From contig JAFSET010000076.1 of assembly GCA_017435615.1 (NCBI GenBank), positions 1 to 61,128 on the forward strand: a DNA stretch of 61,128 bases. Direction: 5' to 3'. Source of the DNA: Oscillospiraceae bacterium (GTDB lineage Bacteria > Bacillota > Clostridia > Oscillospirales > Oscillospiraceae). This document shows, piece by piece, positions 7,773-60,955 of this stretch. The notes below the pieces were generated by a model. The model was given only the letters and a program-made list of their open reading frames with translations, did not search any database and was not told where the DNA came from. How positions within the stretch are numbered: the first letter of the stretch is position 1; each line of letters begins with the position of its first letter. Made by a program: the position numbers and the translations under genes.

Positions 7773-7916
7773 GAGTCCACTACGTCTTCCTGTTGCGGTG
7801 CCCAAAATTTCCTGCCCGCTATTCGCTCACGAAATTTTGACCGCTGCCACTCGCTCGCCTCCCTTGTCTCCGCCACTGGCGGCGGTCGGCTCGCTCCCCA
7901 ATTCCATCACACCGGC
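7773..7916 (-). pseudogene. Broken tRNA-Leu copy split by a 110-bp insertion
   Basis: Bases 7898-7916 repeat exactly the first 19 bases of the adjacent tRNA-Leu, and 7773-7787 repeat exactly 15 bases of its D-arm/anticodon side. In the intact gene these pieces are one base apart; here 110 bases separate them. Similarity continues weakly through the anticodon region (7764-7772), but the T-arm is missing. The insertion carries CAAAATTTC/GAAATTTTG inverted repeats (7803-7840) and a core, 7837-7897, shared with the broken 5S copy. Confidence 0.8.
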
Positions 7917-7931
7917 AATTGGTACTGTGGT

Positions 7932-7960
7932 ATTATACACCATCCATTTGAAAATATCAA
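7932..7960 (-). promoter_or_regulatory. SigA promoter of the tRNA-Leu unit
   Basis: TTGATA, 17 bases, TATAAT on the minus strand, just upstream of the broken copy. No other promoter is visible between it and the intact tRNA. Confidence 0.8.
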
Positions 7961-8006
7961 GTAGTTTTTCACTTATATTTTTGCTGCCGTACTATTTTTT
8001 GAGCGG

Positions 8007-8504
8007 TCAGGGCAGGATTTCGGTAATTCCGGCCTCCAAAGCCTGAGCTGTGAGCATTCCCACGTTTTTACGAACAACCTCTCCTTTTGCATTGACAAAA
8101 ACGGTAACAGGAATAGCGGAGATGTCATAGATCATTGCCGCCTCTGCCGTTGTGTCGTAGAACACGGGAAAAGTATAGCCGCCTTGGTCCAAAACTGCCT
8201 GGGCATCCTCACGGGTATCACTGGTCAGCAGGTTGACCATCATAAACTGCACCTGGGGATACGCCTCGAAGCAGGCCTGGAAATGAGGCAGCTCCGCCTT
8301 ACAGGGCGGACACCAGCTTGCCCAAAAATTGACCACAACAGGCTTCCCCTTGAAGTCGGACAGCTTTACGGAATTCCCCTGCCCGTCCTCCACGGAGAAA
8401 TCATACGCCGCTGTCTGCTCCTGGGGTGGCTGCTCTGCGGCAGCACACCCATACAAAAGCAGCATTGCAATGGCACAAACAACAACCGCAAATAGTCTTT
8501 TCAT
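8007..8504 (-). CDS. TlpA/ResA-like thioredoxin-fold lipoprotein
   Basis: A 165-residue extracytoplasmic thiol-disulfide protein. A signal sequence ends in lipobox LLYGC, then comes an AhpC/TSA-like TlpA fold with active site WASWCPPC and the cis-proline in SAIPVTVF. Such proteins reduce disulfides outside the membrane, often for cytochrome maturation or oxidative repair; no CcdA or cytochrome gene is nearby, so the partner is unknown. The start MKRLF has GGAG 11 bases upstream; an in-frame GTG four codons earlier lies on the binding site. Confidence 0.85.
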   Translation of the reverse strand: MKRLFAVVVCAIAMLLLYGCAAAEQPPQEQTAAYDFSVEDGQGNSVKLSDFKGKPVVVNFWASWCPPCKAELPHFQACFEAYPQVQFMMVNLLTSDTREDAQAVLDQGGYTFPVFYDTTAEAAMIYDISAIPVTVFVNAKGEVVRKNVGMLTAQALEAGITEILP

Positions 8505-8571
8505 CACCGGAAGCACTCCTTCATGTTAGGGTTTTCACGGCAAGAAACGACCAAAAACACAGGAAGGTTTC

Positions 8572-9594
8572 TTACCATTTGAAAGAATACACTGTTTCGC
8601 TGTGATAGCGCTGGCCAGCCTTGAAGAAGGGCTGCACCCACTTGGGATTATTGACACTATTGGGATAGAACTGGGTTTCCAGGGCCACGCCGCCCCGGTA
8701 GCAATAGCTGACACCGTCCTTGCCCTTCTCTCCGCTGAGGAAATTGCCGGAGTAGAACTGCAGGCCGGGACAATCCGTAGAAACAGACATACTGCGGCCG
8801 GACTGCGGATCTGTCAAAATAGCGCAGGGATCTGCGAACGCTTCAAAGCAGTGGTCATAGCCACCTTGCAGCTTCAGGCAGCGGTAATCCTGGTCAATAT
8901 CCCGGCCAATGGGCTTGGGCTGACGGAAGTCCATAGGTGTACCTTCCACGGATTTGTTTTCTCCCAAGGGAATGGACTGCTCATCATCCGGCAGATAATG
9001 CCGGGCAGTCAGCATCAGCACCTGATCCATAGCCTTTTCCGGATGGTCATGGCCGGCCATATTGAAATAGGCGTGGTTGGTCAGATTAAACACAGTATCC
9101 TGGTCACTAATGGCATCATAGGTCAAATGCAGCGCGCCGGGATGATCCAGGGTATAGGTTACATGGATCTTGGCATTGCCGGGCATTCCCTGATCTCCGT
9201 CAGGGCTTTCCAGGCTGAACCGGATGCTGTTTTCCGTGTGCTTCTCAACCGTCCAAAGCCGGTAGGCATAGCTGTCCGGGCCACTGTGCAGATTATTGCC
9301 ATTTTCATTGGCAGGCATTTGCACCGTTTTGTCACCAATGGTAAACTTACCGCCTGCAACACGGTTGGCATTGCGGCCCACTGTAGCGCCGAAATAGCCG
9401 CCTTTTTTCACATAATCCCGGGGAGAATCATACCCCAGGACCACATCGGCCACATTACCCTGACTGTCCGGCACATAAAGCCGCACCAGCGTTGCGCCAA
9501 AGTCACTGATCCAGGCGGACATTTCTCCCCAACGGATTTCATATATACAGGCCTTTTGGCCATTCGGCGCTGTTCCAAATGATTTTTTCTTCAT
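8572..9594 (-). CDS. galM: Aldose 1-epimerase (galactose mutarotase)
   Basis: A 340-residue cytoplasmic mutarotase that interconverts alpha and beta anomers of galactose/glucose in the Leloir pathway. Recognisable motifs are GRNANRVAGGKF, NNLHSGP, the His motif LTNHAYFNMAGH and the catalytic-Glu region GVALETQFYPNSVN. Length is normal. GGAAGG precedes the ATG. No other galactose gene lies nearby, but GH3 and GH10 glycosidases elsewhere in the window fit a plant-sugar user. Confidence 0.93.
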   Translation of the reverse strand: MKKKSFGTAPNGQKACIYEIRWGEMSAWISDFGATLVRLYVPDSQGNVADVVLGYDSPRDYVKKGGYFGATVGRNANRVAGGKFTIGDKTVQMPANENGNNLHSGPDSYAYRLWTVEKHTENSIRFSLESPDGDQGMPGNAKIHVTYTLDHPGALHLTYDAISDQDTVFNLTNHAYFNMAGHDHPEKAMDQVLMLTARHYLPDDEQSIPLGENKSVEGTPMDFRQPKPIGRDIDQDYRCLKLQGGYDHCFEAFADPCAILTDPQSGRSMSVSTDCPGLQFYSGNFLSGEKGKDGVSYCYRGGVALETQFYPNSVNNPKWVQPFFKAGQRYHSETVYSFKW

Positions 9595-9655
9595 CGCATA
9601 TCCTTCCTTTTCATTTTATCAGTAGCATTATACACCATTTGACTTAATTTGCAAA

Positions 9656-10351
9656 CTAAATAAAAAACTTTCTCTCCATCATTTCACGGGCAGGGCGGCA
9701 AATTCCCAGGAAGATCAAAAATCCTCCAAACAGCACCAGCACCGCCATGGGATAAAAGGACCAACCGGAAAAACCGATGGTGTCAAAGGTTACATACAAC
9801 AGCAGCTCCATCACCGGGATAAACAAGCCCAAAGCGGCAATCGCACCGCCATAGACATACATTCTGCCCCGGCGCACATATCGCCGCAGGGTAACCACCG
9901 TAGTTGTCAGCAGCAGGCAAAACCCGGTAACCGGAAAAGCGAAGCTTAAAAACCAATTGCCTGCCACCGCAAAATTGATATACAGCAGGTACACACCCAC
10001 TGCGGCAAAATCGATTGGGACAAAGATCACCGGATTGGGGTGACGAAACCACAGCGGCAAGATCGCCACCACATACAAAAGCACCAGTGCGCCGATAACA
10101 TAGCCGGACCAGGTAACGGTGCCGTTTAAGGGCAGGTCGCACAGCAAAACCGTGATCAGCGGCAGCAAAAAAGCAGCCAGCACGATCATCCGAATTCCCC
10201 AGGGACTGACCTCCTTTTCAGGATACAGCTCCACAGGATAGGGGCTCTGGGCCGTTTTGCGAGGCAGATTGGGGTGATAGGCCTCCAGTCCGCACAGCGG
10301 GCAACGGACCTCTGCATCTGACAGCTTGACTCCACAGGAACAACAATACAT
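9656..10351 (-). CDS. Zinc-ribbon membrane protein (DUF6320-like)
   Basis: A 231-residue membrane protein. The N-terminus carries a CxxC-x12-CxxC zinc ribbon (MYCCSCGVKLSD, RCPLCG), followed by about six hydrophobic segments from residue 55 to 220. This architecture resembles DUF6320 proteins, which are often found beside alcohol-acetyltransferase-like genes, as here. It starts two bases after the stop of the hydrolase/acyltransferase fusion, so the two are cotranscribed. Function is unknown; a role in membrane acylation is an inference from the neighbour. Confidence 0.7.
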   Translation of the reverse strand: MYCCSCGVKLSDAEVRCPLCGLEAYHPNLPRKTAQSPYPVELYPEKEVSPWGIRMIVLAAFLLPLITVLLCDLPLNGTVTWSGYVIGALVLLYVVAILPLWFRHPNPVIFVPIDFAAVGVYLLYINFAVAGNWFLSFAFPVTGFCLLLTTTVVTLRRYVRRGRMYVYGGAIAALGLFIPVMELLLYVTFDTIGFSGWSFYPMAVLVLFGGFLIFLGICRPAREMMERKFFI

Positions 10352-10353
10352 CC

Positions 10354-12528
10354 TTATCTCCTTTCCGCACTGGCCGCGTTGCTGCTGACCTGGGCCTGCA
10401 GACCCAGCTCCTGCAGCACCTTGAAAAAGGCCATTTCAAGCTGAGGCTCCTTGGTGTTACGGATAAAATTCACATAAAGCCGGTCATTGTAGGACAGCAC
10501 ACCGCAGTTATAGGGTGCTGTAGACTGTACCCCAAGAATAAAGTCCAGCCTTGTCACATATTTGCGCATCTGCTCCGGCATCTTCACCACGCCCAAATTG
10601 GACAGGCTCAAACAGGTTTTTCGCTCACCTACCGCCAAAAACACGGCTTTCATCACAAGATTTTTCACAAATAGCGGCATCAGCTTCACCGCCAGGATCC
10701 GCTCGGAATTCACATTGGTAGCGATCTTCATTCCCATCTGACGGGGGGTAATATCCAGTCCCATCCAATGATGGACCACCTGGCAGATCTCTGCAAAGCT
10801 GTATTCACCCATCCGGGGATTGATCTGCGGCGTGGTATACAGCGCAAAATTTCTCAGGGAACTGCTGGGAAATATTCTGCGCAGGTTTACCGGAAGCTGG
10901 ACTTTAATTGCCTTTCTGCGTCCTACATTGGGCACACGCTCCTTTTGAAGCTGCTGTAGTGCCTGCATCATGACCGCACATAAAAACGCCGTCACGGTCA
11001 CACCGTTGCGGTGGGCCTCCTGCAGCACCTGGGGGGCGGAAAGCTCAAAGGCTGTCCAATTCAAAAATCCGTCAGGCTCCGGTGTCCCTGTAAGCCGCCA
11101 GGCGTCATCCTCTTTTCGGCTGGCTGTGACAGGACCGGCATATTTTTGGAAGCTATCCTCCAGTTCCGCCGCAGACGGCTCCTCCAACCGACCCAACACC
11201 CCATTCTCCGCAGGAATGTGCTCTTCATATTTCTGCTGCAGATATTCCGCAACCAAGCTCTTTAAAAATACCAGTCCGCCGTTTCCGTCCGTCAGAGAAT
11301 GGAAGAATTCTGTGGCTACCCGGTTTTTATAAACGATCACACGCAAAGCACACTGTCTGGCCTCCCTCCGGGACATCCTGGCCAGCGGATAACTCAGCTC
11401 CTGCCGGACCGTGGGCGCATGCTCAAGCTGCTGTAAATAGTACCAGAAGGTACCCCGGCGCAGTCTGGCCGCGATGGACGGAAACCGCCGCACCGTTACA
11501 TCCAGTGCCGACTGCATCACCGGAACATCAATTTCTTCCGACAAGTCCATGGACAGGCGGAACACATTGCTCCAGTTTTGATTACGGGCCGCAGGATAGA
11601 TCTTGGCCGCATTGTCCAGACGCATCCAGCGGAGCTTTTTCTCCCGGCTCATACAGCGATTTAAAAATTGGTTGATGGCAGTCATATCCTGTCGGTCTTC
11701 CTCAAGACCGTAGATCACATAGGCATGCCAACGCTCATGCTTTGTCCGAAGGGTACTGGTACAGCCCTGCCGCAGCAGCTTCCCATGAAGCTCCTGAGCA
11801 TCACTGAGCAGCAGCTCCTCTTCCCCCGCTATGATCAACGAAGGTGGCATACCGGACAGATCTGCCAGCAAGGGAGAGGCAATTCCATCCGAAGGATCGG
11901 TGCAATAGCATTGCACACAGTGCCGCAAAAACTTAACGGATAACGACGGATCCGTTTTCACATTTTCCGTGTAAGATCTACCGGACATGGTCAGGTCTAC
12001 CCAGGGAGAAATGGCAACGATGCCGCAGGGCAGGTCTCTTCCCAGCTCCTTTAGCTTCAGGCACAGGCTGTAGCAAAGCCCTCCCCCGGCACTTTCGCCC
12101 AAGAGGGTAATGTGCTCCGGGCCATAGCCCTTTTGCAGAAGATACTCAAAGGCTTGCAGCACATCCTCCGGCGCTGCCGGAAAGGGGTGCTCCGGTGCCA
12201 GGCGGTAAACCGGGCAAAAAACCTTTGCACCAAACTGCTCTGCCAAAAACGAACCCACGCCTTTGGCATAATTCATATCTCCACAGGTAAAGCCACCGCC
12301 ATGCAGATACAGGATCACACCCTGACGCCGCTCATCCTTCGGAATGACCCACAGGCCTGTAAAATTCTCGAAGGTATGCTCACGCAGGACACAGCGGTCT
12401 TGCCGGGCCGCACTGATCACATTGCCTGCAAGCTCCTGTCCCCGGCGCATTCTTTCCAGGGAGCAGCTATCCAAAAAACGCTGCATAATAGAAAGCTGTC
12501 CTCGAACGGTTTTCGACGAAAGCGCCAT
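10354..12528 (-). CDS. Alpha/beta-hydrolase fused to an acyltransferase-like domain
   Basis: A 724-residue two-domain protein. Residues 1-300 form an alpha/beta-hydrolase of the hormone-sensitive-lipase type: oxyanion-hole HGGG (YLHGGGFTCGD), nucleophile elbow GESAGG, and a likely catalytic His in RWHAYV. Residues about 310-724 resemble the condensation/alcohol-acetyltransferase (WES/PapA) fold, with HSLTDGNGG in the place of the HHxxxDG motif; the first His is replaced by Phe (FFHSLTDG). AAAGGAGG lies upstream. It sits between a MarR regulator and the zinc-ribbon membrane gene. Hydrolysis and transfer of acyl groups, perhaps on lipid or cell-wall alcohols, is inferred. I know the two halves mainly as separate neighbouring genes. 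Confidence 0.75.
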   Translation of the reverse strand: MALSSKTVRGQLSIMQRFLDSCSLERMRRGQELAGNVISAARQDRCVLREHTFENFTGLWVIPKDERRQGVILYLHGGGFTCGDMNYAKGVGSFLAEQFGAKVFCPVYRLAPEHPFPAAPEDVLQAFEYLLQKGYGPEHITLLGESAGGGLCYSLCLKLKELGRDLPCGIVAISPWVDLTMSGRSYTENVKTDPSLSVKFLRHCVQCYCTDPSDGIASPLLADLSGMPPSLIIAGEEELLLSDAQELHGKLLRQGCTSTLRTKHERWHAYVIYGLEEDRQDMTAINQFLNRCMSREKKLRWMRLDNAAKIYPAARNQNWSNVFRLSMDLSEEIDVPVMQSALDVTVRRFPSIAARLRRGTFWYYLQQLEHAPTVRQELSYPLARMSRREARQCALRVIVYKNRVATEFFHSLTDGNGGLVFLKSLVAEYLQQKYEEHIPAENGVLGRLEEPSAAELEDSFQKYAGPVTASRKEDDAWRLTGTPEPDGFLNWTAFELSAPQVLQEAHRNGVTVTAFLCAVMMQALQQLQKERVPNVGRRKAIKVQLPVNLRRIFPSSSLRNFALYTTPQINPRMGEYSFAEICQVVHHWMGLDITPRQMGMKIATNVNSERILAVKLMPLFVKNLVMKAVFLAVGERKTCLSLSNLGVVKMPEQMRKYVTRLDFILGVQSTAPYNCGVLSYNDRLYVNFIRNTKEPQLEMAFFKVLQELGLQAQVSSNAASAERR

Positions 12529-12565
12529 GGTCGCACACCTCCTTTGCGTTTATGCTGTAATCGTC

Positions 12566-13012
12566 TTACTCCGGCAATCCGTCCCTGCTTAATTGTGATA
12601 GATTATCCGTAATGGCTGCAAGTACCTCATAAAAAGTTGCCCGTTTTTGCGCGTCATATCCCTGACCGGCGCAGGTAACTGCCACATCTACGCGACGACG
12701 CACCTGGTCCGCAGCCTGCGTCCCAAGCTCAGTCAGCTTCAGCCGTGCTCTGTAGGAATTAGGGGCATCACGGTAAACCAGTTTTTTCTCCTCCAGCGCC
12801 GCAACAGAACGGGATACATCCGCTTTATCCCGGCCGCACAGGCTGCTAAGCTCCGCAGCAGTAAGGCCATCCGGACATTCCAGCAGAGCCACCAAATAGA
12901 TAGCATAGGGTCCTTTCAGTCCGTAACGGGCCATTTCCTGCGTTGCCAGCTTGTGCCAGCAGCGGTATATTTCAAAAATGGAAAAGGAAAACTGTTTAAA
13001 ACGGTCTACCAT
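12566..13012 (-). CDS. MarR-family transcriptional regulator
   Basis: A 148-residue winged-helix regulator. The DNA-binding part is LTAAELSSLCGRDKADVSRSVAALEEKKLVYR, which fits the MarR helix-turn-helix and wing. GGAG lies 9 bases before the chosen ATG; an ATG two codons upstream is too close to it. The gene is first in the operon with the hydrolase/acyltransferase fusion (37-base gap) and the zinc-ribbon membrane protein, so it probably controls them and itself. The palindrome over its promoter is the likely operator. Confidence 0.85.
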   Translation of the reverse strand: MVDRFKQFSFSIFEIYRCWHKLATQEMARYGLKGPYAIYLVALLECPDGLTAAELSSLCGRDKADVSRSVAALEEKKLVYRDAPNSYRARLKLTELGTQAADQVRRRVDVAVTCAGQGYDAQKRATFYEVLAAITDNLSQLSRDGLPE

Positions 13013-13046
13013 AATCATTCACTCCATCAGATCAAATGATACAAAA

Positions 13047-13076
13047 ATTATACACAAAAATCGTTGAATTGTCAAC
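13047..13076 (-). promoter_or_regulatory. Consensus promoter with overlapping palindromic operator
   Basis: TTGACA, 17 bases, TATAAT on the minus strand. The palindrome GTTGAATTGTCAAC (13063-13076, GTTGA-N4-TCAAC) covers the -35, a position expected for autorepression by the MarR protein. Confidence 0.78.
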
Positions 13077-13146
13077 ATTTCTCATTTGTCATATAAGTAT
13101 TTTGACAGACTGAAACAGGATATCCCGGATGGGACGCCCTGTTTCA

Positions 13147-13167
13147 TGGTACGCCGGAAGGGACTCG
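13147..13167 (-). pseudogene. tRNA-Arg 3'-end fragment, same orientation as the gene
   Basis: Matches the 3' end of the intact tRNA-Arg (13432-13452), CCA included, at 20 of 21 positions. Sequence diverges abruptly at 13168. It resembles an attachment-site remnant or partial duplication. Confidence 0.65.
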
Positions 13168-13368
13168 TTTGCATTTTCGCCTTTGGCGAAATTTAGGGTT
13201 CCGCTGCGTCCAGTCACAGTGGGCAGTTCGTCTGTAACCCTTACGTAAAACAAAATAGAAGAAAGTCATCATCCCTTGCAGGATGCGACTTTCTTCTATG
13301 GACTCTCCCACGGGCTAAAAGCAGTCCACCGGACTGTTTTTGCACCAGTCTGCGGACTGGTGCCGCCC

Positions 13369-13395
13369 TTTCGAGTCCATCCTTCCAATGTACCA
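13369..13395 (+). pseudogene. Inverted tRNA-Arg 3'-end copy
   Basis: Reads TTCGAGTCC..CTTCC..TGTACCA on the plus strand, the T-arm to CCA of tRNA-Arg with a 2-base insertion and two changes. It faces the intact gene head to head across the palindrome 13390-13437. No complete tRNA fold is visible upstream of it. Confidence 0.65.
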
Positions 13396-13437
13396 ATAAT
13401 AAAAGGGAGGCTATTGCCTCCCTTTTATTATTGGTAC
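13390..13437 (-). terminator. Long palindromic hairpin at the tRNA-Arg 3' end
   Basis: A perfect 21-bp stem with loop CTATTG; arms run from GTACCAATAATAAAAGGGAGG. The arm nearest the tRNA includes its terminal UACCA, so the hairpin would pair with the tRNA's own 3' end. It likely acts as the terminator, although the T-rich tract lies within the stem. Confidence 0.7.
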
Positions 13438-13507
13438 ACCGGAAGGGACTCGAACCCCCAACCCTCGGAACCGGAATCCGATGCTCTATCCATTGAGCCA
13501 CCGGTGC
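13432..13507 (-). tRNA. tRNA-Arg, anticodon CCG
   Basis: A 76-base tRNA with encoded CCA. The anticodon loop is TTCCGGT between TCGGA and TCCGA (anticodon CCG, reads CGG). T-loop GGTTCGAGTCC and D-arm GGCTCAATGGATAGAGC are intact. Position 1 pairs with position 72 as G-U. Confidence 0.95.
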
Positions 13508-13527
13508 ATGTGCCTTACAGCCCAGTT

Positions 13528-13556
13528 ATTATAGCAGGCTTTGCTCCATTTGTAAA
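13528..13556 (-). promoter_or_regulatory. SigA promoter of tRNA-Arg
   Basis: TTTACA, 17 bases, TATAAT on the minus strand, 20 bases upstream of the tRNA. Confidence 0.8.
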
Positions 13557-13609
13557 GAGGTGATTTTTGAAATTTTACAAAGCATTTTGCGGTTTTCACA
13601 CGAAAAAGG

Positions 13610-13638
13610 TTGTTTTCTCAAAAAAGCTGTGCTATAAT
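13610..13638 (+). promoter_or_regulatory. Promoter of the DivIVA-like gene
   Basis: TTGTTT, 17 bases, TATAAT. The -10 lies in GCTGTGCTATAAT, an extended -10 shape found at several promoters in this window. Confidence 0.75.
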
Positions 13639-13668
13639 CGTAAAAAAGATTTGTTGGAGGGGTCAAAT

Positions 13669-14178
13669 ATGGCCGGAATTCAAAATTTTCGTTCTGCAAT
13701 GGGCGGCTTTAACCGTCAGGATGTAGTCAATTATATTGAGTATATGAACAACAAGCACAATGCCCAGGTGGAACAATTAAACAACCAGCTCCAGGCAGCG
13801 TTATCCCGCCCCGGTGATCCGGCACTTCAGGCTCAGCTTGAAGCGGCTCAGGCCCGTATTCAGGAATTGGAGGCCCAACTGGCCCAGGGCAGCGGCAGCC
13901 CCATCAACTGCACCGAGCAGGAGCTGGAAGCCTATCGCCGTGCAGAACGGACAGAGCGTCAGGCTCAGGAGCGTGCCCAGCAGATCTATGATCAGGCCAA
14001 CGCCGTCCTGGCAGAAGCCACCGTCAAAGCTGAGGCTCTCTCTTCCCAGATCCGCACCGTTGCCGACAACGCCTCCCAGCGGCTGAAGGAGTATCAGCAG
14101 ACCATCGACGAAACAAAGGAAGCCTTCTCCCAGGCGGTAGCCACCCTGTATGCCATCCGTCCGGAGGCGCAGAAATAA
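13669..14178 (+). CDS. DivIVA-domain coiled-coil protein
   Basis: A 169-residue coiled-coil protein. The N-terminus FRSAMGGFNRQDVVNYIEYM matches the membrane-binding start of DivIVA-like proteins (FNRxxVxxYI), followed by a long Gln/Glu/Ala-rich coiled coil. DivIVA proteins sense curved membrane at poles and septa and recruit division or sporulation factors. TTGGAGGGG lies upstream of the chosen ATG; the frame extends farther upstream but without a binding site. It is a single-gene unit with promoter and terminator. It is shorter than B. subtilis DivIVA-type proteins with C-terminal domains. Confidence 0.82.
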   Translation: MAGIQNFRSAMGGFNRQDVVNYIEYMNNKHNAQVEQLNNQLQAALSRPGDPALQAQLEAAQARIQELEAQLAQGSGSPINCTEQELEAYRRAERTERQAQERAQQIYDQANAVLAEATVKAEALSSQIRTVADNASQRLKEYQQTIDETKEAFSQAVATLYAIRPEAQK

Positions 14179-14191
14179 GCATATTTCAGCT

Positions 14192-15284: not shown

Positions 15285-15383
15285 TCTCTACCGCAGCAAA
15301 AAAGCAGCCTCCCTTGCGGAGCAATGCCATAACTTAAGCGGCAAGTCGTTTAAGTTCAGTTTATCACGCCGTAACAGAATTTT

Positions 15384-15595
15384 TCGTAGGGACACCCGTC
15401 CCCGGGTGTCCCCAAGGAGTATGAATCTCAATGAGTCATACTCCGTATTGTGTACTTTTTACGCAGGAAAAGAACAAAATTGACATATTGGGTCACAAAT
15501 TTATTTCGGACACCCGGGGACGGGTGTCCCTACGAGTTTGATATACAGCTTTAGAAATATGAATTTTCGCTTAAATTGACAGCATTGCCTACAGG
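15384..15595. repeat. TCGTAGGG-type inverted-repeat element with conserved tail
   Basis: The left arm 15384-15411 and right arm 15508-15535 are exact 28-base complements bounded by TCGTAGGG and CCCTACGA, enclosing about 96 bases of unique DNA with a smaller AGTATGA/TCATACT hairpin. The tail (15569-15594) matches that of the 3891 copy, ending CTTAAATTGACAGCATTGCC. Confidence 0.8.
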
Positions 15596-27340: not shown

Positions 27341-27399
27341 GCATTGCGCCGCCCATAGGGCGGCAATTTGATACCAACAACAGCTCGATAAATTGGAAT
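27341..27399. repeat. 59-base conserved tail shared with 145-203
   Basis: About 52 of 59 positions match 145-203, including the hairpin GCCGCCCATAGGGCGGC and AACAGCTCGATAAA. It follows the REP-like element in both places. Confidence 0.75.
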
Positions 27400-30402: not shown

Positions 30403-30610
30403 ATTGATACTCTCCGTTAAAGCCTGAAAAGGCTATATATGTTATCATAGCGGTACTACGCCACTGTATCCCACTATAGGGTAACAGAATTGTAACACAT
30501 TGGGAAAGTTATGTCAATCTATCCGAGGCCAAAAAACAGCGAATTCCAAAAATTTCACATTTTGCACAATCGGCCTTCAAAGTCCGGTTTATACATCCGT
30601 TGCGGTTTTT
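30403..30610. other. Region upstream of ftsE, no gene
   Basis: Includes two TGTTACA/CTGTTAC-like sequences near 30480-30500 and TATGAT at about 30441 on the minus strand that may be the ftsE promoter; I could not assign a convincing -35. Confidence 0.35.
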
Positions 30611-30755
30611 TCGTAGGGACACCCCTCCTGGGGTGTCCGAAACAAAATTGGATCTCGATGGGCTAATTTTGTTCCCGTGCATAAACGAATAAAAAGATTT
30701 TGGTGCATCGAGCCCCAAAATCTTTGCGGACACCCGGGGACGGGTGTCCCTACGA
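30611..30755. repeat. TCGTAGGG-type inverted-repeat element
   Basis: Left arm TCGTAGGGACACCCCTCC.. and right arm 30728-30755, which is identical to the right arm at 15508-15535, enclose about 85 bases with their own AAAATTGG..CCAAAATC-like inner pairing. Followed by GCTCGAAAAATCGGAATTT (30774-30787), matching tails of the other copies. Confidence 0.8.
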
Positions 30756-54154: not shown

Positions 54155-54166
54155 CGTTATGCCTCC

Positions 54167-54772: not shown

Positions 54773-54922
54773 AAGACTCCTCCTGATCTGTTACTGTATG
54801 TAGCATACTATTTTTGCTTCTATATTTCAAGTCGCATTTTTCACAATTTGTGTTTAAATCGTCTGTAGTTTGCACTTTTTTATCGCAATAAAAAATGTTC
54901 CATCCGGAAATGTCAAAAACGG

Positions 54923-54951
54923 TTGACGCACCAAAAACCCTTTGATATAAT
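54923..54951 (+). promoter_or_regulatory. SigA promoter of the YjbQ-family gene
   Basis: TTGACG, 17 bases, TATAAT, 47 bases before the start codon. Confidence 0.8.
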
Positions 54952-54997
54952 AGCCCCGGCTAAAAGCATTTATAAAGGTTTTAAGGAGGAATTTACT

Positions 54998-55618
54998 ATG
55001 GAATTGACAATGATTCAAAAAGAGCTACAATTGCAGTCCCGGGGTTGGATCCCCACCTTCCACGACATCTCCATCGATGTGCACAAGATCGTTGAGGAGT
55101 CCGGCATTAAGAACGGTACAGTTTCCGTGGTCTCTCACCACACCACCTGCTCCGTTATGATCCAGGAGTGCTCCCACGACTTTGACTCCTTCGATTTGGA
55201 GTATCTGCAGCACGATTTGCTGGACATTATGCGGAAAATGATCCCTGACTATGTGAACGAAGGCGACTACCGTCACCCCGGCCCTGTTCACGCACAGTTT
55301 GGCCGCTATGTGGATGAGCCCGGCAACTTTACATCCATGAACACCGACGGTCACCTGCGCAGTGTCTTCTTCGGCCGCAGCGAGACTCTGACCATCAAGG
55401 ACGGCAAGCTGGATCTGGGCGAATTTGCTCACATCTACTTCATCGACTGGGACCACGTTCGCGCACGCCCCCGTCAGGTCAACCTGACCCTGTTCGGCAC
55501 CACCGAGGATGTGGGCGACCGCAAGTACAACGGCGGCGAGGTGATCAACACTCTGCGTAAGTTCCCTGCAGAGGAAAAGGCCTATATGGCTCAGTACGAC
55601 GAGTGGAAGATTCGCTAA
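54998..55618 (+). CDS. YjbQ/UPF0047-family protein
   Basis: A 206-residue protein of the YjbQ (UPF0047) family. GTVSVVSHHTTCSVMIQE is the conserved core, and HLRSVFFGRSETLTIKDGKLDLGEF followed by FIDWDHVRARPRQVNLTLFG is the family end. Family members have reported thiamin-phosphate-synthase-like activity in vitro, but the role is unclear. At 206 residues it is longer than the common 130-140, with an insertion near ECSHDFDSFDLEYLQHDLL and a C-terminal tail. AAGGAGG lies before the ATG. GC-ending codons suggest high expression. Confidence 0.85.
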   Translation: MELTMIQKELQLQSRGWIPTFHDISIDVHKIVEESGIKNGTVSVVSHHTTCSVMIQECSHDFDSFDLEYLQHDLLDIMRKMIPDYVNEGDYRHPGPVHAQFGRYVDEPGNFTSMNTDGHLRSVFFGRSETLTIKDGKLDLGEFAHIYFIDWDHVRARPRQVNLTLFGTTEDVGDRKYNGGEVINTLRKFPAEEKAYMAQYDEWKIR

Positions 55619-55628
55619 TCCCATACAT

Positions 55629-55665
55629 AAAAATCCTGCGGCTGCAATCAGCCGCAGGATTTTTT
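55629..55665. terminator. Bidirectional terminator between convergent genes
   Basis: 16-bp stem AAAAATCCTGCGGCTG/CAGCCGCAGGATTTTT with loop CAAT, T-runs on both strands. Confidence 0.9.
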
Positions 55666-57016
55666 ATACAACAATTATGATTTCAGGCGTGGTCTTTGCA
55701 AGGACGCCACTATATTTCTGCGCTGTTTCTCCCAAATATATATCGTACTCTCCTAAAAACCCGTTAAACCGGACCTGGCCATTGACATCGGTCACTGCTT
55801 CAATTTCCGTATGCCACTTGTTCTGTATCAGGTCCTTCAGCGTATAATAAGCAGGCTTTGGAGTCATATCGAAGCGCAGCAGGCCGCCGTAAAACCGGTT
55901 CTCTCCCACCTTCATATTGCCCTGAGAAGCACCGATCACCTCCGGATCGTTAGAAGGTACATAGGCATACCCGTCCACCAAGTTCCAATAAATGATCTGC
56001 TCCACATTGGGATGGGCAAACCAGGTAGTGTACAACCCCTCCAGCAGTTCTGCCTGGATCTGCTCATTCTCCGGTTCCGGTCCGGCAGCGGATATGGTGA
56101 CCTCTGTAATTTGAAGGGGTTTCCCAAATCGGCTGTACAGGTCCAATCTGCTGAGTATCTTTTTAGGATTGTACATCACCGGACTCATACGCTTATATTC
56201 CGTAGAAATCATATCCTTACTGGTCAGAGCGTGGAACTGCATACCGATGGCATCAATGCGACAGCCTTTCAACAGCAGATTTTCAACGTATGCATAATAA
56301 ATATCCGTTACTCTGCCTCGTTGCAGCCAGCTTTCATTCACTGCCTCGTTGATCGCAATTTGATTGCCGGAAAAGTATTTTTCTGCCATTTGATAACACC
56401 AGGTAAGGTATTCCGGATCTTCATAGAAGCTCGTGACATTCATCCCTTCCGGCCAATTCATTTCATTGGTCACTTCAATGGTGCGAATTTCGCTCCCGTA
56501 ACGCTCAGATATTTCCTGATACCGGCGTTCCAGCTCCTGTTTAACAGTTTCCACTGGGAGATCTTTCAGCCATTTTGGAAATTGGAAATCATAGGCAAGT
56601 GCGTGTTCCCGCGGCTCGATACCATACTGTCGGCAAAAGTCCATGCACCGGTCAATCGGCGGACGGCGGTACATGGGACTGCTGCCCTTTTTATACCGCA
56701 AATGCCCCTTCTCCGGCTCTGTGGCATTCCAATAAAAGGGAAGGGTCGCCATTGTAAAAACTTCTGAAAAGTACTTTTTATACAGTTCGTTTTTTAAGTC
56801 ACTTTCCATTTCATCCAGCATAAATAAATTTGCACCGAATTTACATTCGTGCTTTTTGTGGACAAGCTTCACGGAAACACCAGTCACAGGATTTCCGGCG
56901 GCATCCAGAATTCTTAATACGCCATCGCCCTTTCTGTATTTTTCAATGTTTTTTTCCAGCAATTTTTTGGTTTCCGGATCACGCAGATGCTCCAGACACT
57001 TTTCTCTTTCCCTCAC
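55664..57016 (-). CDS. Glycoside hydrolase family 10 endo-beta-1,4-xylanase
   Basis: A 450-residue GH10 enzyme. The acid/base is Glu185 in VTNEMNW and the nucleophile Glu305 in LQITEVTIS; the N-terminal ~60 residues and C-terminal ~60 residues look like small beta domains flanking the barrel. No signal peptide, so it acts in the cytoplasm, probably on imported xylo-oligosaccharides. It starts with GTG after AGAAGGGGG. It is divergent from an AraC-type regulator that may control it. Confidence 0.9.
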   Translation of the reverse strand: MREREKCLEHLRDPETKKLLEKNIEKYRKGDGVLRILDAAGNPVTGVSVKLVHKKHECKFGANLFMLDEMESDLKNELYKKYFSEVFTMATLPFYWNATEPEKGHLRYKKGSSPMYRRPPIDRCMDFCRQYGIEPREHALAYDFQFPKWLKDLPVETVKQELERRYQEISERYGSEIRTIEVTNEMNWPEGMNVTSFYEDPEYLTWCYQMAEKYFSGNQIAINEAVNESWLQRGRVTDIYYAYVENLLLKGCRIDAIGMQFHALTSKDMISTEYKRMSPVMYNPKKILSRLDLYSRFGKPLQITEVTISAAGPEPENEQIQAELLEGLYTTWFAHPNVEQIIYWNLVDGYAYVPSNDPEVIGASQGNMKVGENRFYGGLLRFDMTPKPAYYTLKDLIQNKWHTEIEAVTDVNGQVRFNGFLGEYDIYLGETAQKYSGVLAKTTPEIIIVV

Positions 57017-57096
57017 GGTATTGCCCCCTTCTGTATAGATGACTTATATATACCACAGTTTTTGGTGAATAGATACCGCCAAAACGATAAAGAATG

Positions 57097-57126
57097 TTGA
57101 CTTTTCGAAACTACACAATGTATAAT
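57097..57126 (+). promoter_or_regulatory. Promoter of the AraC-type regulator
   Basis: TTGACT, 18 bases, TATAAT in the 135-base divergent region shared with the xylanase gene. Confidence 0.72.
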
Positions 57127-57151
57127 GTAACATAATCAGGTGGTGAGTTTT

Positions 57152-57919
57152 ATGCTATTTCAGCAAGATGCATTGGCTTTTCAGCTTTTTGATGTACTGC
57201 ACCTTCAGCAAGGTTATTCCAAAACCCGAAACACCAACAGGCACTATGATGCCCTTTCTTTCCGGCTACGATCAGACACTGTGATCGATGACGGGAAAAC
57301 TGTTTCCCATCTGAAAGACGGCTCTATTGCCTACTTCCCATCCAATTTTGAATACACTCGGATCGCTAATCACGATGATTTGATCGTTGTGCATTTTAAA
57401 TGTTTCAATTTTACTGGCAGCGGTTTTTCCCACTTTCCGCCCAAAGATCCCCCTTCTTATGAAGTACTTTTTCAACAGCTTTTAGATGTTTGGAACCAAA
57501 ACGAACTGGACCGGCATTATCAATGCTCCGCTATTTTTTGTCAGATCCTATCCAAAATCTACAAAGAAAACCTTCCTGAAAGAATTTTACAAACAAAAAT
57601 CGAGCCATCGATACGCTATATCCGTCAAAATATGTTAAACCAAGATTTTTCGCTGACAAAAGCTTCCAAGCGTTCCTATATCAGCGACGTGTATTTCCGT
57701 AAACTTTTTAAAGAAGCTTATGGGATTTCCCCAAAGCAATATGTCATTCAGCACCGGATCCAACACGCCGCATCTCTCATTCTATCCGGTTGTTGTCCTC
57801 TGCAGGAAGTTGCCCAGCGGTGCGGTTACAGTGACTATAAGCACTTCACAACGGAATTCAAACGCATAATGGGTATTTCTCCTTCTCATTACGAATATAA
57901 TCATATTTCATTATTATAA
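57152..57919 (+). CDS. AraC-family transcriptional regulator
   Basis: A 255-residue regulator. The N-terminal cupin-like sensing part (residues 1-145) includes HYDALSFRLRSDTVI; the C-terminal AraC DNA-binding domain has SLTKASKRSYISDVYFRKLFKEAYGISPKQYV and the second helix-turn-helix PLQEVAQRCGYSDYKHFTTEFKRIMG. Start MLFQQD with AGGTGG 8 bases upstream; in-frame GTGs lie on that site. It probably senses a plant-sugar product and activates the divergent xylanase gene. The gene is more AT-rich than its surroundings. Confidence 0.88.
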   Translation: MLFQQDALAFQLFDVLHLQQGYSKTRNTNRHYDALSFRLRSDTVIDDGKTVSHLKDGSIAYFPSNFEYTRIANHDDLIVVHFKCFNFTGSGFSHFPPKDPPSYEVLFQQLLDVWNQNELDRHYQCSAIFCQILSKIYKENLPERILQTKIEPSIRYIRQNMLNQDFSLTKASKRSYISDVYFRKLFKEAYGISPKQYVIQHRIQHAASLILSGCCPLQEVAQRCGYSDYKHFTTEFKRIMGISPSHYEYNHISLL

Positions 57920-57930
57920 GGGAGTAAAAA

Positions 57931-58557
57931 ATGAAAAATATCAAGCATTTTATTTGGGATTTCGACGGCACATTGGCTGACAGCTATCCCAATCTCATTC
58001 GGTATATGCAGCAGTCTCTTGCAGACTTCGGAAAAACTGCAGATCCGGTAGAAATTCTGGAGAAAATGATGGAGACCGTGGGTCACGCTATCCGGTGGTA
58101 CGATGCACTTTACGATCTCCCCCAATTAAGTGAACGGTTTGACTATTACCATGAGCTGGGACGAAACGATCCTGTTTGCGCCTTTGAAAATGTAACCGAA
58201 GTATTGAGCAGAATTCAGCAGATGGGTGCATACAACTACATTTATACAAACCGTGGGGAAACAGTTGACGGCATGCTGGACCAAATGGGTTTGCGTAGTT
58301 ACTTCAGAGAGATTGTCAAGGCAGGAGACCCGGAATTTGAATTCAAACCCTCTCCCAGGTCTATCCTGTACTTGATGCAAAAATACGGCGGAACACCGGA
58401 CAACACCGTTATGATCGGAGACCGGAAATGTGACTTGGAATCCGGCTACCTGGCCGGCTGCAAAACAATTCATCTGCAGACCCCCTCCGTTTTGCAGTAT
58501 CCCCCCTGCAACTGGCGCATTACAAATTACCAGGAAATGTTGGATAAATTACAGTAA
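57931..58557 (+). CDS. HAD-superfamily phosphatase
   Basis: A 208-residue HAD hydrolase. Motif I WDFDGTLADS, motif II YTNRGE, motif III Lys in EFKPSPRS, motif IV GDRKCDLESG; a small helical cap follows motif I. It lies 11 bases after the AraC regulator gene on the same strand, so it is cotranscribed with it. It may dephosphorylate a sugar phosphate; substrate unknown. Confidence 0.85.
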   Translation: MKNIKHFIWDFDGTLADSYPNLIRYMQQSLADFGKTADPVEILEKMMETVGHAIRWYDALYDLPQLSERFDYYHELGRNDPVCAFENVTEVLSRIQQMGAYNYIYTNRGETVDGMLDQMGLRSYFREIVKAGDPEFEFKPSPRSILYLMQKYGGTPDNTVMIGDRKCDLESGYLAGCKTIHLQTPSVLQYPPCNWRITNYQEMLDKLQ

Positions 58558-58560
58558 ACA

Positions 58561-58600
58561 AACAGCGAGTCGGTTTTCAATTTGAAACCGACTCGCTGTT
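58561..58600 (+). terminator. Terminator of araC-HAD
   Basis: Stem AACAGCGAGTCGGTTT.C/.GAAACCGACTCGCTGTT, about 18 bp with a small loop. Confidence 0.8.
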
Positions 58601-58794
58601 ATTATATAGAATAAATTCCGTCCATTTCTGGTTTTCGATATGATATTTTTGAAAATAGTAGTCAAATGATATCATTTCCATAAAGCAACCTTTGGGGAGA
58701 ACTTGAACGAAATACTTGGATTTTCGGGACAGATCGTGCGATTCATCTCGTAGCATCTGTTCCCTTTTTCTTTTTGACGCCCTTACAGTTTCTG

Positions 58795-58824
58795 TTGACA
58801 AAAATATATACTTCGTGTTATGAT
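58795..58824 (+). promoter_or_regulatory. Promoter of the PadR operon
   Basis: TTGACA, 18 bases, TATGAT, 25 bases before the PadR start. PadR proteins commonly repress their own promoters; an imperfect ATATATACTTCGTGTTATGATGTAT dyad surrounds the -10 (58804-58828). Confidence 0.75.
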
Positions 58825-58848
58825 GTATGTCGCATAAGGAGGTATGGT

Positions 58849-59169
58849 ATGGATACTCAGTTAAAACGAGGTCTTTTAGATGTATGTGTGTTGGCTGCGA
58901 TTAAAAGCGAGGATTCATATGGATATAAGATCATCAAAGATATGATGCCGTATATCGAACTTTCTGAATCCACCTTATATACCATTTTAAAACGCTTAGA
59001 AACTGCAAATATGCTGACCGTCCGCACCACAGAACATGGTGGCAGACTTCGGAAATATTACCGGATAACCGGATTGGGACTGAAACGCATTGAGGATTTC
59101 AAGGATGAGTGGAAAGAAATTCTGTCAATATATCGATTCGTAACTAGGGAGGACAATGAAAATGAGTAA
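58849..59169 (+). CDS. PadR-family transcriptional regulator
   Basis: A 106-residue winged-helix repressor. LKRGLLDVCVLAAIKSEDSYGYKI is the PadR opening; SESTLYTILKRLETANMLTV is the recognition helix; GLKRIEDFKDEWKEI the C-terminal helix. AAGGAGG lies 6 bases before the ATG. It overlaps the next gene (14 bases), forming the common PadR-DUF1700-DUF4097 order. Confidence 0.9.
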   Translation: MDTQLKRGLLDVCVLAAIKSEDSYGYKIIKDMMPYIELSESTLYTILKRLETANMLTVRTTEHGGRLRKYYRITGLGLKRIEDFKDEWKEILSIYRFVTREDNENE

Positions 59170-59761
59170 ACAAGAGTTTATTGAGCAATTACGCAAGGGC
59201 CTGGCGGACCTCCCCCGGGAAGACATTAAGGAACGCTTAACATTTTACAGTGAAATGATAGATGACCGAATGGAAGAAGGTATTACGGAGGAGGATGCGG
59301 TTAGCAGGATTGGACCAGTCGATACGATTATATCTCAGATCAAGGCAGATATCCCACCTGCCAAACTCGTAAGAGAAAGTATCACGCCAAAGAAGCAACT
59401 AAAAACATGGGAAATCATACTTTTGGTGCTCGGCTCTCCAATTTGGCTTTCTCTTCTGATTGCGGCATTTGCTGTAATTCTTTCGCTTTATATTTCGTTA
59501 TGGTCTGTGGTAATTTCCTTGTGGGCTGTTTTCAGTTCACTTATTGGCTGTGCGTTTAGCGGTGTGATAGCAGGAATTATCTTTGCTTGCAGCAACAATG
59601 TTCTTTCGGCTATTGCTATGCATGCTGCAGGAATCATCTGTGCCGGACTTTCCATTTTTATGTTCTACGGATGCAAAGCAGCAACAAAAGGCACTTTGAT
59701 ACTTGCAAAGAAATTTGTTGCGTGTATTAAAAACTGCTTTCATAAAAAGGAGAATGTGTAA
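59162..59761 (+). CDS. DUF1700 membrane protein
   Basis: A 199-residue protein. The N-terminal ~60 residues (QEFIEQLRKGLADLPREDIKERL, EGITEEDAVSRIG) are the DUF1700 cytoplasmic domain; two to three membrane segments follow from residue 80. Start MSKQEF has GGAGG 9 bases upstream; an ATG two codons earlier is closer. Associated by operon with PadR and DUF4097; these operons have been linked to cell-envelope stress, but the role here is inferred. Confidence 0.85.
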   Translation: MSKQEFIEQLRKGLADLPREDIKERLTFYSEMIDDRMEEGITEEDAVSRIGPVDTIISQIKADIPPAKLVRESITPKKQLKTWEIILLVLGSPIWLSLLIAAFAVILSLYISLWSVVISLWAVFSSLIGCAFSGVIAGIIFACSNNVLSAIAMHAAGIICAGLSIFMFYGCKAATKGTLILAKKFVACIKNCFHKKENV

Positions 59762-60726
59762 TGAAAAAATCAACAAAAATATGGATGACCATAGCAGCTT
59801 CTTTTGTGTTGGTTGCGGGTATCATTTTCGGAGGTGTGATGACGATGCTCAAATGGGATTTTACGAAATTGTCAACGGTTAAATATGAAACCCATGATTA
59901 CGAAATTGCTGAATATTTTAATAACATATCGATTATAACCGATACAGCCGATGTTGTATTTATACCTTCTGAAAACCAAAAAACATCCGTTGTCTGCCAC
60001 GAACGAGAAAACAGAAAACATTCGGTTGCGGTGCAGAACGGTAATCTTGTAATCGAGATTGTTGATACACAAAAATGGTATGAGTATATCGGTATAAACA
60101 TCGGCAAGCCGAAAATAACAGTATATATTCCGCAGGACAAATACGGTGCTCTTTTTGTAAAATCCACTACCGGTAATATAGAAATACCCAAAGAATTCAA
60201 ATTCGAAAACATTGATATCTCGGAAAGCACAGGCAATGTAACGAACTATGCTTCCGCTTCGGAAAATATCATAATTAAGACAAGTACAGGCAAAATTCGT
60301 GTAGAGAATGTATCCGCAAACACACTGGATCTTTCCGTTTCAACGGGTGGGATTACGGTTTCTAATGTAACCTGCGAAAATGATGTTAAAATTTATGTTT
60401 CTACCGGGAAGACGAATCTGACTAATATCGAGTGTAAAAATGTCGTGTCGGAAGGAAACACTGGAGCCATATTCTTGGAAAATGTTATTGCAGCAGAGAA
60501 TTTTTCTATTGAAAGAAGTACAGGTGATGTAAAGTTTGATAGTTGCAATGCTGCCGAGATTTTTGTCGAAACAGATACTGGTGCTGTCAGAGGCAGCTTG
60601 CTTACTGACAAGATATTTATTGTTCAGAGTGATACAGGCAATGTGGATGTCCCAAAATCGGTAGCCGGTGGAAAATGTGAGATCACAACCTCAACCGGTG
60701 ATATTAGCATAAGCATAAAGCAGTAA
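59761..60726 (+). CDS. DUF4097 beta-helix protein
   Basis: A 321-residue protein with one N-terminal membrane anchor (residues ~8-30) and an extracytoplasmic right-handed beta-helix-like domain. About ten turns, each near 20 residues, carry an STG-type motif (TTGNIEI, STGNVTN, STGKIRV, STGGITV, STGKTNL, NTGAIFL, STGDVKF, DTGAVRG, DTGNVDV, STGDISI). This is the DUF4097 pattern of putative adhesin or scaffold proteins. The start overlaps the preceding stop by one base (TAATG). Confidence 0.85.
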   Translation: MKKSTKIWMTIAASFVLVAGIIFGGVMTMLKWDFTKLSTVKYETHDYEIAEYFNNISIITDTADVVFIPSENQKTSVVCHERENRKHSVAVQNGNLVIEIVDTQKWYEYIGINIGKPKITVYIPQDKYGALFVKSTTGNIEIPKEFKFENIDISESTGNVTNYASASENIIIKTSTGKIRVENVSANTLDLSVSTGGITVSNVTCENDVKIYVSTGKTNLTNIECKNVVSEGNTGAIFLENVIAAENFSIERSTGDVKFDSCNAAEIFVETDTGAVRGSLLTDKIFIVQSDTGNVDVPKSVAGGKCEITTSTGDISISIKQ

Positions 60727-60785
60727 ACAAGCCATATCTTTTAGGTTATTATAAAACAGGTGGACCGGTCAACCTGTTCCAAACA

Positions 60786-60817
60786 ACAAACCCCCGGCCT
60801 TTCGGTCGGGGGTTTGT
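60786..60817 (-). terminator. Terminator behind the broken 5S copy
   Basis: 14-bp stem ACAAACCCCCGgCC/GGtCGGGGGTTTGT with loop TTTC, ending two bases from the 5S-like sequence. Confidence 0.75.
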
Positions 60818-60818
60818 C

Positions 60819-60955
60819 TTCGCGTTACCTATCTTCCCAGGGAGTGACACGAGCGCTGCCAGTGGCGGATGAAGCGAGGTGAGCGAGTGGCAGTGATCAG
60901 CAGATGACGCAGCCGCCCCGAAAAGGAAACTGATGGACCCGCAAGACATGAGGGC
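60819..60955 (-). pseudogene. Broken 5S rRNA copy with inserted core
   Basis: Bases 60819-60841 equal exactly the 3' end of the intact 5S gene (60993-61015). Bases 60841-60900 are an unrelated insert whose ~60 bases match the core in the broken tRNA-Leu at about 80 percent by eye. Bases 60925-60955 weakly resemble the 5S 5' side (GGAAAC.G.TGGACCC). The copy therefore keeps its end and terminator but lost the centre. Confidence 0.7.

What the first reader, a model, noticed from the sequence alone, without database searches (positions are those of the whole stretch)
7837..60900. Same ~60-bp core inside both broken RNA genes, in opposite orientation
7837-7897 (plus) and 60841-60900 (minus) align along their length with roughly 80 percent identity by eye, sharing GCCACTCGCTC and CCGCCACTGGC. 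Relative to the disrupted RNA gene the two lie in opposite directions. Both sit inside a broken copy of a structural RNA adjoining an intact copy. A small element class that lives in duplicated tRNA/rRNA genes would be new to me.
Basis: partly seen in the sequence, partly recalled or inferred. Interest (0 to 1): 0.72.

Follow-up and report, generated by a model that had tools for sequence, protein, structure and literature searches.

The report
Tiny mobile hairpins in spare tRNAs
The two matching stretches are copies of an apparently undescribed, gene-less piece of DNA about 112 letters long, with a strictly kept fold, that is scattered through many gut Clostridia and is found again and again inside broken spare copies of tRNA genes (and sometimes 5S rRNA genes).

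Summary
The core is the 5' half of a longer element, E (about 112 nt): window 7789-7899 (-) and a decayed copy at 60839-60948 (+). The own genome has 5 copies, each within 105 bp of an intact tRNA or 5S gene. E is in 37 of 99 genomes of the relatives search and 19 of 118 across the class (own included in both), and 37 times on one replicon of the isolate Vescimonas fastidiosa. Compensatory changes support the fold; no Rfam match in the loci searched. Of 215 copies, 88 lie within 200 bp of an intact tRNA (85 same-strand), 27 more have tRNA fragments in their flanks, 5 adjoin 5S. In a separate class-wide set 16 of 44 adjoin a tRNA, all same-strand. E usually follows a GG, most often the tRNA D-loop GG, in truncated copies; rejoining the flanks never gives a tRNA (0 of 205). 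Nearest relatives mostly lie at other sites, so E is probably mobile. Mobilising enzyme unknown.

The parts
7789..7899 (-). element E, full length, GGGGAGCG...CCGCAACAGG
   Evidence: R1 covariance model 101.9 bits, model positions 1-114 (the copy was in the training set)
7900..7917 (-). 5' end of the broken tRNA-Leu copy (acceptor strand to D-loop); the D-loop GG (7898-7899) coincides with the element's first two bases
   Evidence: left flank matches the intact tRNA up to linear position 19, ending at the element
7773..7788 (-). continuation of the broken tRNA-Leu copy (AGACGTAGTGGACTC); the base at 7788 next to the element is A on the minus strand where the intact tRNA has T
   Evidence: sequence; right-flank match to the tRNA (row L003)
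7642..7728 (-). intact tRNA-Leu(caa)
   Evidence: ARAGORN; Rfam RF00005 52.8 bits for 7645-7728
60839..60948 (+). element E, decayed second copy, antisense to 5S
   Evidence: R1 56.6 bits, model positions 1-114 (not in the training set)
60817..60841 (-). remnant of a second 5S rRNA 3' end
   Evidence: direct repeat 60788-60845 / 60962-61019, 84%
60788..60815 (-). terminator-like hairpin of the broken 5S copy
   Evidence: sequence; part of the repeat; the terminator scan was not run
60962..60989 (-). terminator-like hairpin of the intact 5S gene
   Evidence: sequence; part of the repeat; the terminator scan was not run
60991..61106 (-). intact 5S rRNA
   Evidence: RF00001 88.6 bits

Best explanation
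E is a non-autonomous, gene-less mobile element of about 112 nt that is recognised through its fold (a 5' hairpin with GA-rich internal loops and a 3' hairpin GCGGT...ACCGC). It is moved in trans by a recombinase or transposase not identified here, and enters after a GG, most often the invariant GG of tRNA D-loops (G18-G19 in standard numbering). Insertions persist where a redundant copy of the target exists: truncated upstream (5') or downstream (3') duplicates of tRNA genes, 5S 3' ends, fragments of other gene ends, and loops of other palindromes. Shown: the fold, copies at unrelated sites and in different species, the GG junction of the commonest subfamily, the truncated host copies. Inferred: mobility itself, the trans-acting enzyme, recognition of the folded single DNA strand, and selective survival in spare copies.
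For: Fold: 18 of 26 pairs with changes on both sides, 183 such cells against 57 in shuffles, 0/500; repeated on 118 distinct other rows (435 against 157) and 63 more (304 against 103), two alignments that were fitted to the model. Dispersal: for 45 of 204 copies of 100-125 nt is the nearest relative labelled as the same genome; for tRNA-site copies 11 of 86, with the same tRNA type in 23 of 86 (a lower bound, since genome codes and record names cannot be matched). The window's tRNA-Leu(caa) copy is nearest (92%) to one at tRNA-Leu(taa) of another species. Copies on IMG/VR contigs (5 by the full pattern). 24 copies of 115 nt at 94-106 bits on one complete replicon of an isolate. Tandem copies sharing the GG (L021, L038). 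Site: of 52 upstream-type tRNA cases 32 end at linear tRNA position 17-20 (counted); the base after the element is a purine in 93% of 115 unique sites (only the 147 copies with canonical ends were used) where the intact tRNA mostly has T (by eye). Host copy truncated: 0 of 205 rejoined sites give a tRNA. DNA-level fold: G.U is 5 of 1120 pairs in E (21 best-aligned pairs) against 78 of 1220 in tRNA stems of the same loci.
Against: No autonomous relative, dedicated enzyme or transposition event was seen. Orientation with tRNA is 85:3 but all 5 copies next to 5S are antisense, which no simple rule explains. The G.U deficit is weaker in the broader set (36 of 2721) and much of the fold is invariant G-C. 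One of five measures does not beat the shuffles (further pair types, 58/500). No insertion was caught in a still full-length duplicate, which plain insertion into a spare copy should sometimes give. Single-sequence folds are not always better than shuffles (L021 z = 0.5 as RNA). Most copies are in MAGs, and sister species may share a copy by descent.
Confidence: 0.62

Rival explanations
1. E is a functional structured RNA domain of composite tRNA-derived transcripts (tRNA 5' or 3' piece + E + hairpin), kept by selection for a cellular role such as control of tRNA expression or processing.
For: Same strand as the tRNA in 85 of 88 and 16 of 16 cases; upstream-type composites lie directly before the intact tRNA; in 26 of 37 tRNAs with E downstream an inverted copy of the tRNA 3' part follows the terminator, against 8 of 581 mismatched pairs; composites at tRNA-Ser recur in many species.
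Against: Antisense in all 5 copies next to 5S; copies on IMG/VR contigs, in gene fragments and in other repeats; 62 of 99 genomes lack a match; G.U pairs are rare; nearest relatives are usually at other sites. The inverted copy is not special to E: it is also scored for 12 of 47 tRNAs with no counted E within 200 bp (some of these are repeat views of E loci) and 8 of 42 with E upstream.
Confidence: 0.18
2. E is a relic of integrative elements or gene cassettes that use tRNA and gene ends as attachment sites; the truncated copies are attL/attR scars and E is the leftover recombination site.
For: Truncated tRNA copies are 5' or 3' ends. spoVT, spoIVB and spoVA fragments recur up to four times within 8 kb, with genes between them in the two loci whose ORFs I listed.
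Against: E sits inside the fragment, not at its junction with the next genes; most fragments in those arrays have no E; at tRNAs of the upstream type only 25-100 bp lie between most E copies and the tRNA; one element uses very different targets.
Confidence: 0.12
3. E is a tiny intron or IStron-like insert removed at the RNA level.
For: Precise insertion after GG inside tRNA and spoVT/spoIVB sequence; structured; mostly sense in tRNAs.
Against: 0 of 205 rejoined sites give a tRNA; no match to an Rfam family other than tRNA or 5S in the window and 31 loci; the host fragments are truncated.
Confidence: 0.03
4. The duplicated tRNA pieces come from an independent process (snap-back or slippage), and E merely collects in any non-essential palindromic or repeated DNA.
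For: A decayed full-length second tRNA-Leu copy without E (L301) and another insert family at the same position (L296, L300, L307, from genomes without a match) exist; most Vescimonas copies read sit in palindrome loops.
Against: A test of insertion points for enclosing hairpins gave 55% for E against 70% for random GG sites; the tRNA excess holds against intergenic controls.
Confidence: 0.2

Closest known systems
Rickettsia palindromic elements (RPE)
   Same: 100-150 nt, gene-less, palindromic, dispersed, reported inside genes including RNA genes (recalled; a passage seen in PMC3733652 mentions an RPE-1 in a Rickettsia tRNA pseudouridine synthase gene)
   Different: Different phylum; E is often in truncated spare tRNA copies; no sequence or structure relation was tested
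REP sequences with RAYT (Y1) transposases
   Same: Folded, short, gene-less, probably moved in trans
   Different: E is ~112 nt with two hairpins; PF01797 was not found in E-rich near-complete genomes G059 (15 copies) and G054 (10)
MITEs of DNA transposons
   Same: Small, non-autonomous, multi-copy
   Different: No gene-bearing relative with these ends was recognised in the loci searched; at most a 2-bp GG at the junction
Integron attC sites
   Same: Fold conserved more than sequence, few G.U pairs, variable terminal stem (attC features recalled)
   Different: Two hairpins; no cassette at the element's edge; integron integrase was not searched for
Group I/II introns and IStrons
   Same: Insert inside tRNA sequence, mostly sense strand
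   Different: No intact host tRNA after removal; no Rfam match

Membership tests
REP/RAYT | Y1 (HUH) transposase in the genome | tested here: not met
   no PF01797 match in G011, G054, G059, G078, G091, all with E; 50 of 99 genomes have one
REP/RAYT | 20-40 nt GTAG/CGTC-tagged hairpin | tested here: not met
   aligned copies are 109-116 nt and nearly all begin GGGGA; size from the abstract and tags from the title of PMC3733652
MITE | parent transposon with the same ends | tested here: inconclusive
   halves 31-41 nt apart in all 199 paired matches (repeat views included); 10 unpaired 5' and 33 unpaired 3' halves, two 5' halves (L126, L184) with a 3' half 154-2851 nt further on that I did not follow; whole genomes were not scanned for unpaired halves
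MITE | target-site duplication | tested here: inconclusive
   GG on both sides, but GG could belong to the element
IS110 and TnpB-bearing elements | their transposase or nuclease present | tested here: not met
   PF02371 in 1 of 12, PF07282 in 1 of 12 near-complete E genomes
Retroelement (group II intron, retron) | reverse transcriptase present | tested here: not met
   PF00078 in 5 of 12 near-complete E genomes
Self-splicing intron | host RNA complete after removal | tested here: not met
   0 of 205
Rfam families | match above gathering score | tested here: not met
   window and 31 loci; permissive search of 4 loci (L021, L038, L009, L063)
RPE | sequence or structure homology | not tested
   recalled only
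Integron attC | RYYYAAC/GTTRRRY cores and an integron integrase | not tested
   recalled features; not searched

The most novel reading that the evidence does not exclude
Insertion of E and partial duplication of its target happen in one event: the element makes its own spare target, leaving the host tRNA whole, so that even a single-copy essential tRNA gene can be colonised. This would explain why no copy was found in a full-length duplicate (0 of 205) and why the broken copy mostly begins near the tRNA 5' end or ends at its 3' end. Against it: tRNA duplicates without E exist.
Probability: 0.2. Interest if true: 0.88.

Novelty: new variant of a known kind. Interest (0 to 1): 0.64.

Why it matters
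It is a class-wide family of folded, probably mobile repeats, undescribed as far as my searches went, that is drawn to copies of the most conserved and essential genes of the cell while the working gene stays whole. It offers a natural system for asking how tiny elements without genes move, how tRNA genes duplicate and decay, and why tRNA loci are integration hot spots in gut Clostridia. A covariance model and an isolate replicon with 37 matches make it directly testable.

Tried and rejected
Intron: rejected. Y1, RT, IS110 and TnpB as required residents: rejected. Gene-bearing version inside the 3' hairpin: none recognised in the loci held (two odd spacings, L126 and L184, not followed). Insertion into hairpin loops as a general rule: not supported, 55% of 209 E sites against 70% of 832 random GG sites. 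Complementary flanks around non-tRNA copies: no difference, mean duplex energy -18.5 against -18.2 at random positions. Finding the orthologous empty site of the window locus through the neighbouring TlpA-like gene: orthologues at 36-52% identity, loci not read further; tRNA-Leu(caa) loci of relatives were read instead. Rfam at permissive threshold: tRNA and chance-level matches only. Papers: searches gave no description of this element; I saw listings with abstract starts, plus passages of PMC3733652. The library lacks most subscription journals. The 215 copies are distinct by their flanks, but orthologous copies of sister species still count separately; this was not corrected.
Full report
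WHAT IS THERE. The two stretches match at 80% (E = 3e-8 in the own genome). A BLAST of the longer window copy hit 25 of 99 genomes (own included), in long (~111 nt) and short (~61 nt) alignments. Where I looked, the short ones were the conserved 5' half of a complete element. Read on the strand that begins GGGGAGCG, the commonest form of the element E is about 112 nt: GGGGAGCGA-NNN-GASCG-CYGCC-loop-GGCRG-ANNAA-GSGA-NNN-GAGCGAGTGGC-NGCGGTCG-variable stem-CGGGCACCGCAACAGG. In the window it is 7789-7899 (-) and, decayed, 60839-60948 (+).

FOLD. On 54 aligned copies (A1) a 26-pair structure that I drew from the alignment has 89.4% standard pairs. 18 pairs and 183 cells have changes on both sides; shuffled cells average 57 and 0 of 500 shuffles reach the observed value; slid versions fall to 28-54% paired. 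One of the five measures, the number of further pair types, is reached by 58 of 500 shuffles. Further matches repeat this: 118 distinct rows with 435 double-change cells against 157, 63 rows with 304 against 103; those alignments are fitted to the model, so they lean towards it. The inner part of the 3' stem is poorly aligned (half of its cells paired). In other subfamilies the outer 5' stem has a quite different sequence yet still pairs by eye (L239, L243-L245, L250, L251, L255). Between stems lie repeated GA/GA mismatches. G.U makes up 5 of 1120 pairs in E (21 best-aligned pairs) and 78 of 1220 in tRNA acceptor and T stems of the same loci (36 of 2721 in the broader set of 26 pairs), which hints that the fold is selected as DNA. 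Folding single sequences is unremarkable for some copies. No Rfam family other than tRNA and 5S matches in the window and 31 loci; a permissive search of 4 loci gave tRNAs and chance-level matches.

WHERE IT OCCURS. Own genome: 5 copies, next to tRNA-Leu(caa) and 5S (window), tRNA-His (L031, 98 bp), tRNA-Leu(tag) (L002, 28 bp) and tRNA-Met (L251, 104 bp). Relatives: 37 of 99 genomes, up to 15 copies. Class-wide sample: 19 of 118 genomes. Both counts include the own genome. A pattern scan of GTDB contigs stopped at its limit with 119 stretches; by their titles 118 are from Clostridia and one is only named Bacillota. IMG/VR: 5 contigs by the full pattern; the half patterns hit 9 and 16 (the new ones were not read). 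Phage records: 2 partial matches in human gut phages. In the isolate Vescimonas fastidiosa MM35, replicon NZ_AP023416.1 (860,917 bp) has 37 matches, 24 of them 115 nt at 94-106 bits.

LINK TO tRNA GENES. Of 215 copies with distinct immediate flanks, 88 lie within 200 bp of an intact tRNA, 85 on the same strand; 5 adjoin 5S (within 300 bp), all antisense. Of the other 122, 27 have a 13-mer of a known tRNA in their flanks; the rate at random positions is 3.4%. Of 99 copies in 6-8 kb loci 43 are near a tRNA, against 8.6% of intergenic positions of the same loci and 3.9% in loci whose copy is not near one. As a separate check I took 44 of the 59 copies outside the own genome and G077 from the class-wide search (the best-scoring ones; 15 weaker ones were not fetched): 16 of 44 have a tRNA within 200 bp, 16 of 16 on the same strand. 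By eye several more of the 44 carry tRNA 3' ends, but I did not count them formally. Sister species can share a copy by descent, so these are not all independent events.

ANATOMY OF THE SITES. Upstream type (52 of the 85 same-strand cases): a truncated 5' copy of the tRNA, beginning in most cases within about 15 nt of the mature 5' end, runs to a GG; then E; often a short piece of the following tRNA sequence; then the intact tRNA. In 32 of the 52 the break is at linear tRNA position 17-20, the D-loop GG; other positions are 9-13 (6), 22 (1), 31 (4), 43-45 (4) and 75 (1); 4 gave no adjacent match (counted). 22 of the 32 are tRNA-Ser and probably partly share descent. Downstream type (33 of 85): after the tRNA terminator the reverse complement of the tRNA 3' part is found; in 30 of 33 this match reaches into the tRNA, in 3 (L055, L129, L216) it covers only the trailer. 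Then follows a direct 3' piece with E and, in several, the CCA end and a second terminator (by eye). A search for the inverted copy in the trailer succeeds for 26 of 37 tRNAs with E downstream, 8 of 42 with E upstream, 12 of 47 with no counted E nearby (some of these are repeat views of E loci), and 8 of 581 mismatched pairs. Among the 147 copies with canonical ends, the base after E is a purine in 93% of 115 unique sites where the intact tRNA mostly has T. Removing E and rejoining never gives a tRNA: 0 of 205. Tandem E copies share the GG (L021, L038), and whole units of tRNA piece plus E repeat (L108, L135, L170).

OTHER SITES. Several copies sit in fragments of protein-gene ends that recur in the same locus: SpoIVB C-terminal part 3 times in L139 and 4 in L118, SpoVT N-terminal part 4 times in L091, a SpoVA C-terminal part 3 times in L173 (the names rest on my reading of the translations, not on a family search). 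Flanks repeated within 400 bp were found for 39 of 93 copies against 2 of 92 controls; flanks repeated anywhere in the 6-10 kb locus for 37 of 102 against 28 of 306. In Vescimonas most of the 30 loci read (of 37 matches) show E inside the loop of another palindrome (GGGCCGATGT[E]AYCATCGGCCCCTACG and relatives), whose E-free form is also there; one locus has a tRNA within 200 bp. I read that as amplification of a composite. A test for hairpin loops at insertion points in general was negative.

MOBILITY AND MECHANISM. The nearest relative of a copy is labelled as the same genome for 45 of 204; for tRNA-site copies it has the same tRNA type in 23 of 86 and the same genome in 11 of 86 (genome codes and record names cannot be matched, so the same-genome counts are lower bounds). 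The window's tRNA-Leu(caa) copy is nearest (92%) to a tRNA-Leu(taa) copy of another species; a tRNA-Pro copy is nearest (93%) to one on an IMG/VR contig. So E is dispersed across sites and species, and I infer mobility; no transposition has been observed. A copy has no room for a gene: the two halves are 31-41 nt apart in all 199 paired matches, repeat views included; 10 unpaired 5' and 33 unpaired 3' halves remain, mostly with a variant other half, and two odd spacings (L126, L184) were not followed. In 12 near-complete E-bearing genomes RVT_1 is found in 5, IS110 in 1, TnpB in 1; Y1 transposases were not found in E-rich G054 and G059. Tyrosine and serine recombinases were not searched for. 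I favour recognition of a folded single DNA strand by a recombinase acting in trans, entry after GG, and survival in redundant copies. Only the anatomy and the dispersal are shown; the enzyme and the steps are inferred.

AGAINST THIS READING. The strand rule for tRNAs (85:3) is not matched by 5S (0:5). No insertion in a full-length duplicate was seen, which plain insertion should sometimes give; this is why I keep the one-event reading as the novel case. E-free duplicates also exist: a decayed second tRNA-Leu copy in L301, and a different insert family at the same position in L296, L300 and L307, from genomes where one search found no E. The link to tRNA genes is lost in Vescimonas.

NOVELTY. 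Eight paper searches found no account of it, in a library that lacks most subscription journals. Small folded mobile repeats are a known kind; the fold, the class-wide spread and the preference for broken spare tRNA genes appear new.

Noticed in passing
L296, L300, L304, L307, L046, L050, L121 (after tRNAs): A second insert family (hairpins such as AGTGTCCGGTGGACACT and ACCAGT..ACTGGTGG, then TTTTTGCC..GGCAAAAATGCAA) sits between an inverted and a direct copy of the tRNA 3' end, 68-82 nt after the tRNA in 10 loci found by a loose pattern (22 pattern matches, 11 near a tRNA), also in genomes without E; E is nested in it in some loci.
   Followed up: partly
L091, L111, L118, L139, L173: Truncated gene ends (spoVT 5', spoIVB 3', a spoVA 3') recur within 8 kb, in L091 and L139 with other genes between them (in L091 a Fic-like and a nuclease-like protein by my reading), as if small cargo were serially integrated at sporulation genes.
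   Followed up: partly
window 3929-3991, 15380-15535, 30607-30755: Palindromic repeats with a constant end (..GTCCCTACGA) and variable stems; a similar family (..CCCCTACG) is abundant around the Vescimonas fastidiosa copies.
   Followed up: no
window 13381-13446: The trailer of tRNA-Arg(ccg) is part of a 94% inverted repeat that includes an inverted copy of the tRNA 3' end, without E.
   Followed up: no
L351-L356 (NZ_AP023416.1): Variant element sharing the 5' hairpin domain of E but with a different 3' domain.
   Followed up: no
L202 (IMG/VR contig): Contig with phage-like genes by my reading, one E and several copies of another repeat of ~180 bp between its genes.
   Followed up: no
window 145-203 and 27341-27399: 88% identical 59-nt direct repeat of another kind.
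   Followed up: no
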